From Mesostigma viride (Eukaryota > Streptophyta > Mesostigmatophyceae > Mesostigmatales > Mesostigmataceae): a DNA stretch of 64,000 bases. Below are positions 3,960 to 58,200 of this stretch, piece after piece. The stretch covers positions 5,480,445 through 5,544,444 of the forward strand of contig RPFO01000156.1 of NCBI GenBank assembly GCA_009746045.1, read 5' to 3'. The position numbers and the translations under genes were made by a program. Position 1 is the first letter of the stretch. Each line of letters starts with the position of its first letter. Below the pieces are notes generated by a model. That model was not told where the DNA came from. It saw nothing but the letters and a program-made list of their open reading frames with translations, and made no database searches.

Positions 3960-6900
3960 TTACTTCTTGGCCAGGAACGCCTCGAGCTTCTCGACCTCCT
4001 TGGTGCTGCCGACAAACAGGGGCACGCGCTGGTGCACCTTCTCGGGGATGATGTCCATAACGCGCTCCGTGCCGGTCGAGCCCTTGCCGCCCGCCTGCTC
4101 AGCGATGAAGCTCATCGGCGCGCACTCGTACAGCAGGCGCAGCTTGCCGTTCTTGTTCTTGCTGTCGGCCTGGGGGGGGCGAGGGGGCGGGGGGGGGGGG
4201 GGATGTCACATTGAGGCAGAGTGGGGAACCGGTCAGCAACGTCACTGCAGGTGGAAACTTATGGGCAGGAACTGCCCTGGACCCCTTATTGGCATCGGTT
4301 GGCATTGTAATAAATTAACCAAGGGTTCGGGAGCCTCTGTCGCCATTATCCGGCGTGGTAAACACTTGCTCTGGTTCCATTCCAGATCATCACAGGAAGC
4401 ATCGAGCATCTGCCAAGCTCTTGGCTCGCATGGTGGCAGTGGCATGTCCCTCAGCAGGAATACACAGGACGAGAGAGGGTTATTACAGTGACCAGTGACG
4501 TAATGAAACCGGTAGGTAGCCATGACTACCTCCGCAGAGCAGCGTGCGGAGGAAGCATGAATCGCCATCCCTTACTAACCCCCCCGCGTCCCCAGGCCTG
4601 TAACCACACACAGGCCTGTAACCACACAGGCCATAGCGAGAACCGTACTGGGCAGCCGTAGATGCCACTTTATTGCCGTGTGCGGTGCAAACACCAAGCG
4701 CCACCAATCAAACAAACCCCAACCGGCCTTGGCCTATCCTGACGTCCCTACAATGACACTGTGTCGCCATACAAGCCTCCAAACAGCAGCATGCGCTGCA
4801 GAAGCCTTTTACAATTATCAGACAACCCCCACTCCCCCAACTACAACTACAACAGCAAAATCGAATCCACGTACGGGGTAGCCGTAGATGCCTCCGTACA
4901 GCAGCGTGCGGTGGAAGTCGCCCACCAGCGAGCCGATGTAGCGCGCGGAGTAGGGCTTGCCGTTGGCCTGCGGCTGCTTGAGGCTGTTCATGTAGGCCTG
5001 CAGCTGGGGCGTCCACGCGGCGTAGTTGCCCTCGTTGAACGAGTAGATGGGGCCGGCCTCCGGCACGCGGATGCCGTCATGGGTGAGCACAAACTCGCCC
5101 ACCGTCGGGTCGAGGGTGAAGCCGTAGACGCCCGTGCCCACAGTGATGACCATGATCGTGGATGAGGAGTACATGCAGTAGCCGGCCGCCTTGAGGTTGC
5201 GGCCCGGCTGGCACGTGTTGACCAGGCAGTTGGCCTGGGGGAATGGGTGGGCGGGGAGGTATTATACACGATATAGAAATGGCAGTGCGGTGTAGTATAG
5301 GGAATGGGTGGGCGGGGAGGTATTATACACGATATAGCATAGGCAGTGTGGTGTAGTATAGGGAATGGGTGGGCGGGGAGGTATTATACACGATATAGCA
5401 TAGGCAGTGTGGTGTAGTATAGGGAATGGGTGGGCGGGGAGGTATTATACACGATATAGCATAGGTAGTGTGGTGTAGTATAGGGAATGGGTGGGCGGGG
5501 AGGTATTATACACGATATAGCATAGGCAGTGTGGTGTAGTATAGTTCTTTTTAGAACAGGGGGCGGGGGGTTGTTTTGCGGGGGCGGGGCTGAAGAAGGC
5601 GGTCTGTGGACGAGATGCACATGATCAATGAGATGCCTACTGTGGGGGTTGGGCTAGTTCAAGGTTCACAGGAAGGGCGCCGCACTCCCATGTAAAACTC
5701 AGCGGCGATCACGGCAATGGAGTTGGCGCGGGGGTGGGGTTGGGAAGAAGAGAGAAAGGGGGTGGGCGAGGCTGGGGTGACATCATGCGGTGCGCACATC
5801 CATCACCCCCCACTGTCCAATGTCGCCATTTGTGGCTGTGCCAGCCAATAGGATAACAGAAAGAATGTCTGCCAGAGCAAGGGCGACTAATCACTCAGCC
5901 AACACCAGTGCTGCTGGTCATGATACCTAACCTATGGACACACACACACACACTCCTTGCCAATGTTCTTGCTCATTCCTGTTGTTGTTCCCAAACACAA
6001 ACCTCATGCCCCTCCCAGTTCTCAGCCGGGTGACCATCATCACCACCTGGCCGACCAAAAGCGCTAAACCCAAGAAAACGAACCACCTGGTTGTCTTGTT
6101 CATCAGTTGTTGCCGGAAGGTATGGCATGCCTAATTGACAGTGCTGAAAACAACAATCAAAGCAAACATGTCCCTGCAGGATGGACAGTTACAGGGCATG
6201 TCATGACAAGAATCATGACCACAAATCCGTACCTGCAGGATTAATTAATTAATTAATTAAACTCGTGCTCCCGTTGGGGAGTCACGGAGCACCGAAGTGC
6301 TTTTAATCCCTGTGTGTGCACTACAGGAGAAAGGGCAGAGACCCCCAGTCTCCTTCATGCCAAAGGCATGCCACAGCTGCAATCGGGCGCGGCTAGCTAA
6401 AAGGACAGGCTAACGATCCGGCAAACTGTGGGTGCAATAAGACCCATGTGAGCATATCATAGCAAGGAGCGTGGGCAAGTAATCTGAACATAGCCAGGGC
6501 GTAGCATGGCTGTACTAGGACTAGGCTAAGGCTATGGCTGGTTGTGTACCGTGCGTTGGCGGCACGTGACTAGGTGTGTTGGCACAGCTAGGCGACATCT
6601 AGGCATGGCTGCCTTAGCGGCAGTGACGCCAATGGTTACAAGCTAGGGCTATTGCTATTCTAGCCCGCTGGGGGCGTCCACATCTTGTGGTTGATCATCA
6701 GGTCCCCGCCCCTCCAGTACACCTTGGGCTTCTGGGGGTCCTGCTTATGGCGGAGGTATTCCGGCCACAGGTCGCGTCGCTGCTGTTGCTGAGCGGGGGT
6801 GAGGTCGTCATCCAGCGTCCAGGTGAGGTCGTGCAACCGCTTGCGACGAGAGAGGAACCGCTGCTTATCCTCAGGGGAGGGGAAGGTGAGTAGGACTGGT

Positions 6901-55273: not shown

Positions 55274-58200
55274 CTACTCAACAGGTCTCTTCTTGGCCAA
55301 GTTCGTGAGCCGTTTCTCGACGTCTGTCGGAATGGTCAAGATGGCCTGGCGATTGTTAGCTGGGTTGACAACAATGGTGTGTTCGAACCCCGCGTCCATG
55401 CACAGGTAGCAATTGACCAAGTTTGGCTGTTCAGCTTGCGCATCGGCGTCCATTTTGAACATCGTCGCCATACCCGGAAATCTGTCCCAGTAGCGCACCC
55501 CCACCACCCATTGTCCCTTACGGAACAACTCCCTATCGACCTTGCCGTTTCTGTCGGCCACTCGCCTCACGAAAGTAGCGGCCACCTGATAAGGCTCCTG
55601 CAAGACTTCCGCTAGCCAATATGGATGATCTGGATCGTGGGACTCATCACCAGAGTAGGACTCGACGGCAAAAATGTCTCGCAGCTTCAGTCTCCTTCCC
55701 ATCATCGTCCTCTCTGCCTGTAGTCTGTTCAGTCGCGTCCCTGCGTGCCCCCCTTGTCCGTTTGGGTTCCTTTGCACTGGCTCCCCCAGTTTGTGGAGCT
55801 TCATCCGAGCACCTCCCACATTCCAGCCGTCCATGTCGGTCCACTCCTTTCGACAATCCCACCACCTTTCCTCGGCGCACGCACCGCCACAATAGCAGGA
55901 ATACTGGCGCAGCATTAAGCGCGTCACATTCGACTTGTCCATGCGCCACCAGTGCGCCTTCTTCACTCCTTTGATTTCGCCGCGCCCTGGGCTGTAAGGA
56001 AGCACCTGCGCGTCGAAGACAAGATTTGCACAAGGGAAAGTTGAAGTTACGAGACCATCGAGCTAGTTGTGTTTTATTAAGCACTCCTGATCGCCAGGAC
56101 TCCAAGAACGCCCTAGAAACGACGGCCGGCGTAACTATTCCCTGAACGAGGACTGTACACTTAATTACCTCGGGGAACTCGAAGAAGTTACGCCTGGTCG
56201 TTGTGGTCCCGCCCACCGCCCCCGACGCCAGATTCTCCACCAACTGGGCGGCCGTCTGTTTGTCCTGGTTCTCTTCCCTGATGTGCCACCTCCTCAACAT
56301 GCACTTCACAGTCCCACCAGCTCCATCCACCTCCCCCTTTCCGTGCTGCTCCCCAAAGTAATTCCACTCAAATGACTCCAGGTGCGGATCCTCCGTCAGC
56401 AGCCGGGCCACTTCCGCGATCACATTCCTTGACTTGAACTGCATGGAGCAATTGTCCGACCACCCAATGAAGCGCTTCACCTCTACCCCTTCTGACCGTA
56501 GTGTCGCCAGGATTTTGAGGATAGCAAAACGGAGGGCCCGCCCGTCCCTTTTCATTCCGCCCTGTCCGATGAAGTGAAACTCCCTTCTCACGACCTTTCC
56601 CGACGCTGGATCCAAGTAGCGCACGATCCAGGGCATAAGGACGAATGTGACTGGATGCCAATACTGTGCTTGGAGATTGTGATAGGTGTAAGACTGGTAG
56701 TTCTCGGCGTAATCTGTGTGGCATACAAGGTCCCCCACCCGCATCCTTGAGAGACATTCCTTGGAGGCGTCCGCTTGCCACCACGCGTTGAAGCAATGCT
56801 GGATGAAGTCCGGCCACTTGTCCACAATTGCCTCCTTTAGCTCCGTTGGTGTGGACTTGACGTCGACTTGCGTCAATCGCTGCCCACCAGCCTTTGCGAT
56901 CTCGTCACAGTCGTCCTGCATATGCGCAGTGTGCACATACAGAAAAGACATCAACTTCGACCCACCAATGACCTGTAGAAAGAAAAAAGACAGGACCTCA
57001 GGAAAAATTGAAAAAGAAACGCCTTGGGGCGCAACCACTCCACTAAAAATTACCTCTGGCCCAAGAACTTCAGGAAACATTGCAAAAGAAACGCCTTGGG
57101 GCGCAACCACTCCACTAAAAATTACCTCTGGCCCAAGAACCGCACCCGGCGGCACATCCTGCATCTCGTATCTGGTCCATGAAATCAGGTGGTTGGAAGC
57201 CTCCTCCCGTTCGCATAACATGAAGTTCCGAATTCCACACTTGGGAGCCAGGCAAGTGCCCAACACACAAGCCTTACGCCGGATCGAGCAAACCCCCAAC
57301 TCCTCGCCCAGGTCATGATCGGGCACCCCTTCCTCGTCGTCCAGCACCCTCCCATGCATGGGCAGATCCTCAAGTTCGCCCTGAAAAGGCTGAACCTGCG
57401 GCCGCGACGACCCCACAGACGACCTCGAACCTCCCCCCTCCCTCATCCCCTCCACCTCACAAGTAAACTTGTTCACCCACTCTGTCGTGTGAGTGGCTTT
57501 GAAAATGGAACATGTGGGCACGGACGACCCCACGTCGAGCTGGCTACCATGATCGCACGCGTGGCATTCAGGTCCGCACTCGCATCTGGCATGAAAAGTT
57601 GCACGAAATTTGGCCAACCCCCCAACCATGGACTGCATGGTAGTGTGGTGCTGGCATGCGCACAAGTTCCGCATTTTCCACCGCCCCTTGACGCATGCGG
57701 GCATATGCTTGCAAAAAGTAGTGTATCCCACATGAACTGTGCTCTTCTGATTCGTGCGTAGCATTGACATCCCTGCCTCCGTCTCCAAAATCACCTGATT
57801 TCCCCCCCTCACACCCTCCTCTCCCTCCCCCCCCCCCCCCCCCCCCCCCCCCCCCCCCCCCCCCCCCCCCCCCCCCCCCCCCCCCCCCCCCCCCCCCCCC
57901 CCCCCCCCCCCCCCCCCCTCCCTACTGTCCATCCGCCGCGGTGGCTTCAACTCCGGATGGCGGGAAATGAACACTTCGTAAATCTTCGACTTGGAGACAG
58001 TATAGTAGCGCGCACCCTCCGAAAACGCTAGTGTATGTTTGTAATCCTTTCTGGTCCATTCACAATGAACATCCTTCATGTTCGGAGACGCCCGCGTCAA
58101 GTTATCATCCCTCCAGCACGCTTGTATCAGGGCAATGACTTCCGTCGGAAGCTCGTCTTTCCTCCTCCTCCTCTCTGGCGCACTCATCAAAAGGTCGTCC

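What the first reader, a model, noticed from the sequence alone, without database searches (positions are those of the whole stretch)
4170..57140. Introns built from ladders of copies of their own 5' splice junction
In three unrelated genes (FBPase introns 2 and 3, glycosyltransferase introns 2 and 3, transposase-like gene B intron 1) the intron contains serial copies of the end of the preceding exon together with the splice donor. Copies start next to the real junction, step at regular intervals (45, 60-65, 69-81, 72 and about 95 bp depending on the intron) and generally decay with distance. Several keep a consensus donor. This points to intron lengthening by recurrent tandem duplication that starts inside the exon end, leaving rows of decoy donors. 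I know of introns arising from tandem duplication of AGGT, but not of such ladders as a genome-wide habit.
Basis: seen in the sequence. Interest (0 to 1): 0.88.

Follow-up and report, generated by a model that had tools for sequence, protein, structure and literature searches.

The report
Exon-end echo ladders in algal introns
In the green alga Mesostigma viride about a third of the introns sampled hold decayed tandem copies of the end of the preceding exon plus its splice signal, like 'mirages' known from a few lancelet genes but far more widespread here and mostly at the intron's start.

Summary
The genome is Mesostigma viride: the window's FBPase equals annotated protein Mv00851 and the glycosyltransferase matches Mv00853, which fixes the introns. 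Of ten introns fixed in the window, 4 pass z>=5 for an echo of their own 5' junction; a fifth (GT2 intron 2) has junction arrays with only 5-8 nt of exon.

I then sampled 49 introns elsewhere (CCT, HSP70, kinesin, FBPase genes), chosen without regard to repeats. Sixteen of 49 echo the 5' junction, 3 of 49 the 3' junction (McNemar p=0.002). Controls: 0 of 49 inverted, 2 of 392 against other introns. The echo rate peaks at the 5' junction (17/48) and is near zero 50-100 nt inside exons (1/120).

Best explanation: local tandem duplication of about 45-130 bp across exon end and donor. The upstream donor stays in use, so extra copies become intronic and decay. Simulated uniform duplication gives less than observed, so a 5' hotspot is likely but not proven.

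Kind known: amphioxus 'mirages' (PMC3087553). New here: prevalence, 5' bias, fossil ladders, a streptophyte alga.

The parts
4170..4874 (-). FBPase intron 3; holds three echoes of the exon 3 end (up to 43 nt of exon)
   Evidence: junctions, confirmed by Mv00851-RA; z 9.6
4758..4804 (-). FBP3 echo 1 (donor position +115)
   Evidence: score 22
4620..4690 (-). FBP3 echo 2 (donor position +226, GT kept)
   Evidence: score 30
4502..4555 (-). FBP3 echo 3 (donor GT lost)
   Evidence: score 27
5235..7157 (-). FBPase intron 2; 5' junction ladder with about 92-nt steps; a separate 61-bp x5 array lies at its 3' end (5239-5544) and contains no exon
7024..7077 (-). FBP2 echo 1 (donor +92)
   Evidence: score 16
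6973..6993 (-). FBP2 echo 2 (20 of 21 identical, donor +183)
6173..6187 (-). FBP2 far fragment, 15 of 15 identical; a second far fragment lies at 6227-6241
35356..36369 (-). GT2 intron 2; 45-bp array at the junction and 64-bp array further in
36238..36369 (-). 45-bp array abutting the donor; copies carry about 5 nt of exon
35901..36171 (-). 64-bp x4.3 array; units carry about 8 nt of exon end plus a donor-like GTGAGT
   Evidence: read from the sequence
34367..35184 (-). GT2 intron 3; echoes with donors at +68, +140, +216
   Evidence: z 6.8
56916..57125 (-). Transposase-like gene B intron 1 (210 nt), open in frame but absent from the annotated relative's protein
56998..57140 (-). 72-bp x2 array: 15 nt exon end + donor + intron start, one echo identical over 55 nt
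   Evidence: z 7.7

Best explanation
The ladders are fossils of local tandem duplications at DNA level. A stretch of about 45-130 bp that straddles the 5' splice junction (most often 10-45 nt of exon end, the donor, and intron start) is duplicated in place. The upstream (original) donor goes on being used, so each extra exon-end-plus-donor becomes intron sequence. It is then free to be duplicated again in register and to decay, while purifying selection keeps the exon original legible as a reference. Equivalent duplications across the 3' junction survive less often, most simply because the first-transcribed splice site tends to win at both ends: harmless at the donor, harmful at the acceptor. 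Net effect: introns grow at their 5' end and carry rows of decoy donors. Shown here: the copies, their junction register, specificity to the intron's own exon, occurrence in a genome sample, and the 5'/3' asymmetry. Inferred: the DNA-level mechanism, the splice-choice rule, the lengthening, and a mutational hotspot at the junction.
For: 16 of 49 independent introns echo the 5' junction, against 0 of 49 inverted-probe and 2 of 392 cross-intron controls. The positional profile peaks at the junction: 17/48 at 0 and 13/47 at +25, against 6/47 at +50, 2/49 at -25, 1/47 at -50 and 0/73 at -75 and -100 together; interior tests 150-600 nt from either end give 46 of 402 (summed). Some arrays are plainly tandem: C1468 76 bp x3.9, C1502 83 bp x3.5, C2189 70 bp x2.4, starting 20, 28 and 23 nt inside the exon. 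Echo mismatches fall on all codon positions with a modest third-position excess (82/371 vs 115/729), as expected if the copy is non-coding and the original is constrained. GT is kept in 34 of 44 echo copies and hardly better than adjoining exon bases (88.6% vs 86.4% per base), which suggests neutral decay. 3' echoes are 3 of 49; McNemar 15 vs 2, p=0.0023. Positive introns are longer.
Against: TRF-detectable arrays (period 25 or more) show no significant junction excess: 3 of 16 overlap the 5' junction against 2.03 expected (P=0.33), and 0 of 7 in eight window introns (GT2-6 and TpB-1, whose 72-bp array does overlap it, were not in that run). So a hotspot is not proven. Exon copies reach less deep than simulated breakpoints give (observed 0/41 and 1/47 at -50; simulated 3-5% uniform, 12-18% with a hotspot), so the simple model is incomplete. 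The nearest copy is best or tied in only 7 of 12. No RNA-seq was available, so use of echo donors is untested. Junctions outside the window are inferred from Pfam matches and GT-AG rules.
Confidence: 0.77

Rival explanations
1. Ordinary minisatellite turnover spread evenly over introns. The junction looks special only because the exon half is conserved, so old duplications stay visible there.
For: TRF-detectable arrays are placed about as expected by chance. A uniform-duplication simulation gives a mild junction advantage in some settings. Purely intronic probes at the intron start (7/42 at +45) do not exceed those at 100-250 nt.
Against: Uniform simulations with interior rates of about 10-15% give roughly 9-18% at the junction, against 14/43 and 16/42 observed; binomial P for 14/43 is 0.003 at p=0.15, 0.016 at 0.18 and 0.10 at 0.23. 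It does not explain why 3' echoes, equally visible, are five times rarer. Junction spacing (median 95 nt, 20 introns) exceeds interior spacing (56 nt, 21 introns), p=0.035, although some interior probes sit in the ladders themselves.
Confidence: 0.3
2. The echoes are kept by selection as decoy donors or splicing enhancers that regulate use of the real donor.
For: 34 of 44 echo copies keep GT; several look like near-consensus donors in the alignments.
Against: GT is hardly better kept than adjoining exon bases (88.6% vs 86.4% at -3..-1); copies decay and spacing varies; 33 of 49 sampled introns show no 5' echo.
Confidence: 0.06
3. The introns were born by tandem duplication of an AGGT-bearing exon piece (Rogers / Gao and Lynch model), and the ladders are remains of that birth.
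For: Copies contain exon end plus GT; amphioxus mirages have been proposed as a route to intron gain.
Against: The model needs the acceptor end to be a copy of the 5' junction: 0 of 57 introns at z>=4, mean z 0.03.
Confidence: 0.03
4. Introner-like or other mobile elements inserted at junctions.
For: Introners exist in other algae (recalled); the genome paper reports transposon activity (passage).
Against: Echoes match their own exon, not other introns (2 of 392); inverted matches 0 of 49.
Confidence: 0.02
5. Assembly artefact (collapsed or repeated long reads).
For: Near-identical arrays (72 bp, 76 bp) can be produced by assembly error.
Against: Echo copies average about 74-86% identity in the exon part; the pattern is polar (5' over 3').
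Confidence: 0.02

Closest known systems
'Mirages' of amphioxus: minisatellite-like tandem duplications of exon-intron boundaries (Adh, globin, troponin C and PGBD5 genes; further loci cited there)
   Same: Tandem units that include exon sequence, a splice signal and intron; units of 10-160 bp; many but not all copies keep AG/GT; splicing reported undisturbed (PMC3087553 and PMC3902484, passages read; the original Adh paper PMC117041 is not held).
   Different: Reported in a handful of lancelet genes, at both boundaries (globin BflGb6 units 81-100% alike). Here: a streptophyte alga, 16 of 49 sampled introns, 5' over 3' about 5:1, largely decayed ladders.
Intron gain by tandem genomic duplication (Rogers 1989; Gao and Lynch 2009, both seen only as citations; potato RdRp case PMC4974935, listing and abstract start seen)
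   Same: Tandem duplication carrying an exon-end AGGT.
   Different: There the duplicated AG becomes the acceptor of a new intron; here the 3' end of the intron is unrelated to the 5' junction (0 of 57) and an existing intron seems extended.
Introners / introner-like elements of algae (recalled)
   Same: A mutational process acting on many introns of one algal genome.
   Different: Introners are dispersed copies of a shared element; these echoes are private to each intron's own exon.
Intronic minisatellites in general
   Same: Local tandem arrays; present here too in intron interiors (13 of the 16 arrays).
   Different: Junction ladders include coding sequence, have longer spacing (median 95 vs 56 nt) and peak at the 5' junction.

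Membership tests
Amphioxus-type mirages | Tandem units spanning an exon-intron boundary | tested here: met
Amphioxus-type mirages | Minisatellite-sized units (10-160 bp reported) | tested here: met
   TRF junction arrays of 70, 76 and 83 bp, 45 and 72 bp in the window; first echo donors at 68-126 nt in 18 of 23 introns
Amphioxus-type mirages | Many, not all, copies keep the splice dinucleotide | tested here: met
   34 of 44 copies keep GT
Amphioxus-type mirages | Both 5' and 3' boundaries affected | tested here: met
   16 of 49 and 3 of 49; 3' ladder with four aligned copies at C777:137791-137155
Amphioxus-type mirages | Normal mRNA despite extra splice signals | tested here: inconclusive
   annotated proteins Mv00851 and Mv00853 skip the echoes in the window genes, but no RNA reads were available
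Amphioxus-type mirages | Copy-number instability between haplotypes or somatically | not tested
   duplicate contigs exist (C622/C2, C1641/C887) but were not compared
Tandem-duplication intron gain | Intron 3' end is a copy of the 5' exon-intron junction | tested here: not met
   0 of 57 introns at z>=4
Introners | Same element shared by many introns | tested here: not met
   2 of 392 cross-intron matches at the 5' junction; the test covers the junction probe only, not whole introns

The most novel reading that the evidence does not exclude
In M. viride the 5' splice junction is itself a mutational hotspot for local tandem duplication (about three times the interior rate), perhaps coupled to transcription or splicing, with breakpoints mostly 10-45 nt inside the exon. 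This is a main route by which its unusually long introns grew, and the five-fold 5'/3' imbalance is an evolutionary footprint of a 'first-transcribed site wins' rule of splice-site choice.
Probability: 0.35. Interest if true: 0.8.

Novelty: new variant of a known kind. Interest (0 to 1): 0.62.

Why it matters
How introns lengthen, and how cells ignore nearby decoy splice donors, are open questions. If the sample holds for the genome, thousands of introns carry natural rows of copies of their own donor with matching exon context, a ready experiment on donor choice. The published account of this genome puts its long introns (mean 1141.9 bp) down to repetitive elements filling 30.1% of intron space (PMC6947507, passages); junction ladders would add a second, self-made source. 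The 5'/3' imbalance can be tested genome-wide at once.

Tried and rejected
Ungapped self-comparison missed most old echoes and was replaced by gapped probes. The Rogers-type intron birth test failed. Selection on echo donors was looked for and not seen. A hotspot claim from TRF arrays alone failed. Reading transposase B intron 1 as coding (frame open through it) was dropped after P0122. No cross-species control was run: the tool says the genome has no relatives there, and I had no other eukaryote genome. Literature: ten searches were answered; among the papers listed I saw none on junction ladders in an alga or plant, apart from the potato intron-gain case. Some lists were capped (20 of 91, 12 of 243), and most subscription papers are not held. 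PMC12783039 (passages) concerns intronic repeats in earthworm genes, not junction copies.

Rows dropped before the count of 49: C1702:1286109 (HMM gap 20, junction doubtful; strong array, z 25); C1106:3118932 (frame difference 4; 5' echo z 13.5); C1580:2340818 (score 2.8; z 1.7); C2:5832404 (score 3.5; z 1.0); four low-score CCT candidates not tested for echoes; two window FBPase rows. So of the four tested, two were positive and two negative.

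Full report
Identity of the genome and gene models. The window is G000:C2:5480445-5544444 of a 439.9-Mb, 2243-contig assembly. Its FBPase, spliced by me from four exons, is identical over 426 aa to eukprot entry jgi/Mesvir1 Mv00851-RA, so the organism is Mesostigma viride, a streptophyte alga (taxonomy). The glycosyltransferase product is identical over 622 aa to Mv00853-RA, which is 964 aa long. 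These two proteins fix nine introns (the sixth of GT2 read from P0121 by eye). The transposase-like gene B has an annotated relative, P0122, whose protein lacks intron 1. That gives ten introns in the window.

The observation. Local alignment of each exon end plus donor with its own intron finds echoes at z>=5 in FBP2, FBP3, GT2-3 and TpB-1. FBP3 is the clearest old case: three copies of up to 43 nt of exon end at 78-85% identity, spaced about 111-136 nt. The other five introns have no 5' echo. The 61-bp x5 array in FBP2 lies at the acceptor end and holds no exon sequence.

Independent sample. PF00133 was searched but not used. I fetched stretches by coordinates only; because of the letter limit only part of the HSP70 and kinesin loci was fetched. 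Junctions were inferred from adjacent Pfam matches, frame, and GT-AG scores. 49 introns in at least 23 gene loci passed (median 634 nt, range 161-2005; one junction ambiguous within 2 bits; 10 with a length difference from the Pfam gap of 1-3 residues). Later stretches were picked for short spans, which favours short introns.

Result. With 60 shuffles per test, 16 of 49 introns echo their 5' junction (z>=5, score>=15) and 3 of 49 their 3' junction, with one intron in both; McNemar 15 against 2, p=0.0023. Inverted probes give 0 of 49. Probes against eight other introns each (40 shuffles) give 2 of 392 for either junction. By family: CCT/chaperonin 7/22, kinesin 7/19, HSP70 2/7, FBPase 0/1. Good examples: the C1502 kinesin intron at 245345 has three copies of the last 28 exon bases without a mismatch plus donor, 83 nt apart; C2189 at 671600 repeats 23 exon bases plus donor at 70 nt; C1989 at 425234 copies up to 69 exon bases with gaps. 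The C1468 chaperonin intron has a 76-bp x3.9 array beginning 20 nt inside the exon.

Position. Sliding the probe along 43 introns, then 49, gives a sharp peak at the junction: 14/43 at 0 and 16/42 at +20; 17/48 at 0 and 13/47 at +25. Away from it: 6/47 at +50, 2/49 at -25, 1/47 at -50, 0/73 at -75 and -100. Interior positions 150-600 nt from either end give 46 of 402 (my sum). 3' junction: 3/43.

Is the junction a hotspot? The exon half of a junction duplication is conserved in the original, so such events could stay visible longer. I simulated uniform duplication with constrained exons at several rates and depths. With interior rates of about 10-15%, the junction reaches only about 9-18%. A run with extra junction duplications (twice the base rate on top) and 20% tolerance at the 3' side gives 34% at the 5' junction and 3.5% at the 3' junction, near the data (33% and 7%). 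On the other side, the 16 TRF arrays are placed about as chance predicts (3 at the 5' junction, 2.03 expected, P=0.33), and simulated echoes reach deeper into the exon than the real ones. So an excess is likely, its size is uncertain, and its mechanism is inferred.

Anatomy (23 of 57 introns with a junction-spanning alignment of score 17 or more, 44 copies, no z filter, so a few may be chance). The first echo donor lies 68-126 nt from the real donor in 18 of 23. Copies carry a median of about 27 nt of exon; 34 of 44 carry 10-45 nt. 34 of 44 keep GT, per base hardly better than the adjoining exon bases. Mismatches to the exon are spread over codon positions with a modest third-position excess. 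Junction spacing is longer than interior spacing (median 95 against 56 nt, p=0.035). All this fits neutral, non-coding copies of a constrained original.

How it most likely works. Shown: tandem copies in junction register, private to each intron. Inferred: slippage-like tandem duplication of DNA across the junction; continued use of the upstream donor, which makes the copy intronic; repeated in-register duplication; decay. The 3' mirror image would require the downstream acceptor to win. Three introns show it can, but it is five times rarer, as expected if the first-transcribed site usually wins. I know of in vitro work favouring the downstream donor when donors are duplicated (recalled, not looked up), which would make donor choice here the more interesting.

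Comparison. The same structure has been described in amphioxus as mirages (PMC3087553, passages; PMC3902484, passage). Those reports concern a few genes and both boundaries. Among the papers my ten searches listed I saw no such report in algae or plants (limits in Tried and rejected). The M. viride genome paper gives a mean intron length of 1141.9 bp; a term search of its text found no 'splice' and no 'tandem repeat'.

Limits. The pooled tests cover 57 introns, 49 independent and 8 from the window (two more window introns were tested singly); paralogous genes are not fully independent; no RNA data; no second species.

Noticed in passing
window 35382-35514: Perfect (TGA)44 microsatellite inside GT2 intron 2, about 25 nt from the acceptor; on the transcribed strand a (TCA)n run where a polypyrimidine tract would lie.
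   Followed up: no
window 57823-57922: A run of about 100 C inside the open frame of transposase-like gene B, read as poly-glycine; the gene model around it is doubtful.
   Followed up: no
window 62648-63997 and 61715-62377: Large minisatellite arrays, 71 bp x19 and 30/88 bp, not tied to any gene identified here.
   Followed up: no
G000:C777:137791-137155 (L041): A 3' mirror-image ladder: four aligned upstream copies of the acceptor plus the start of the next exon.
   Followed up: partly
G000:C1641 vs C887 (CCT gene); C622 vs C2 (kinesin gene): Duplicate contigs, perhaps haplotypes; one CCT intron differs in length, about 4082 vs 907 nt between the matched exons.
   Followed up: no
window 5239-5544: 61-bp x5 array (97% alike) next to the acceptor of FBPase intron 2, supplying its pyrimidine-rich end.
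   Followed up: partly
window 6260-6680 and 22010-22430: Two nearly identical long blocks (about 400 bp), one inside FBPase intron 2, which look like dispersed mobile-element copies; seen by reading only.
   Followed up: no
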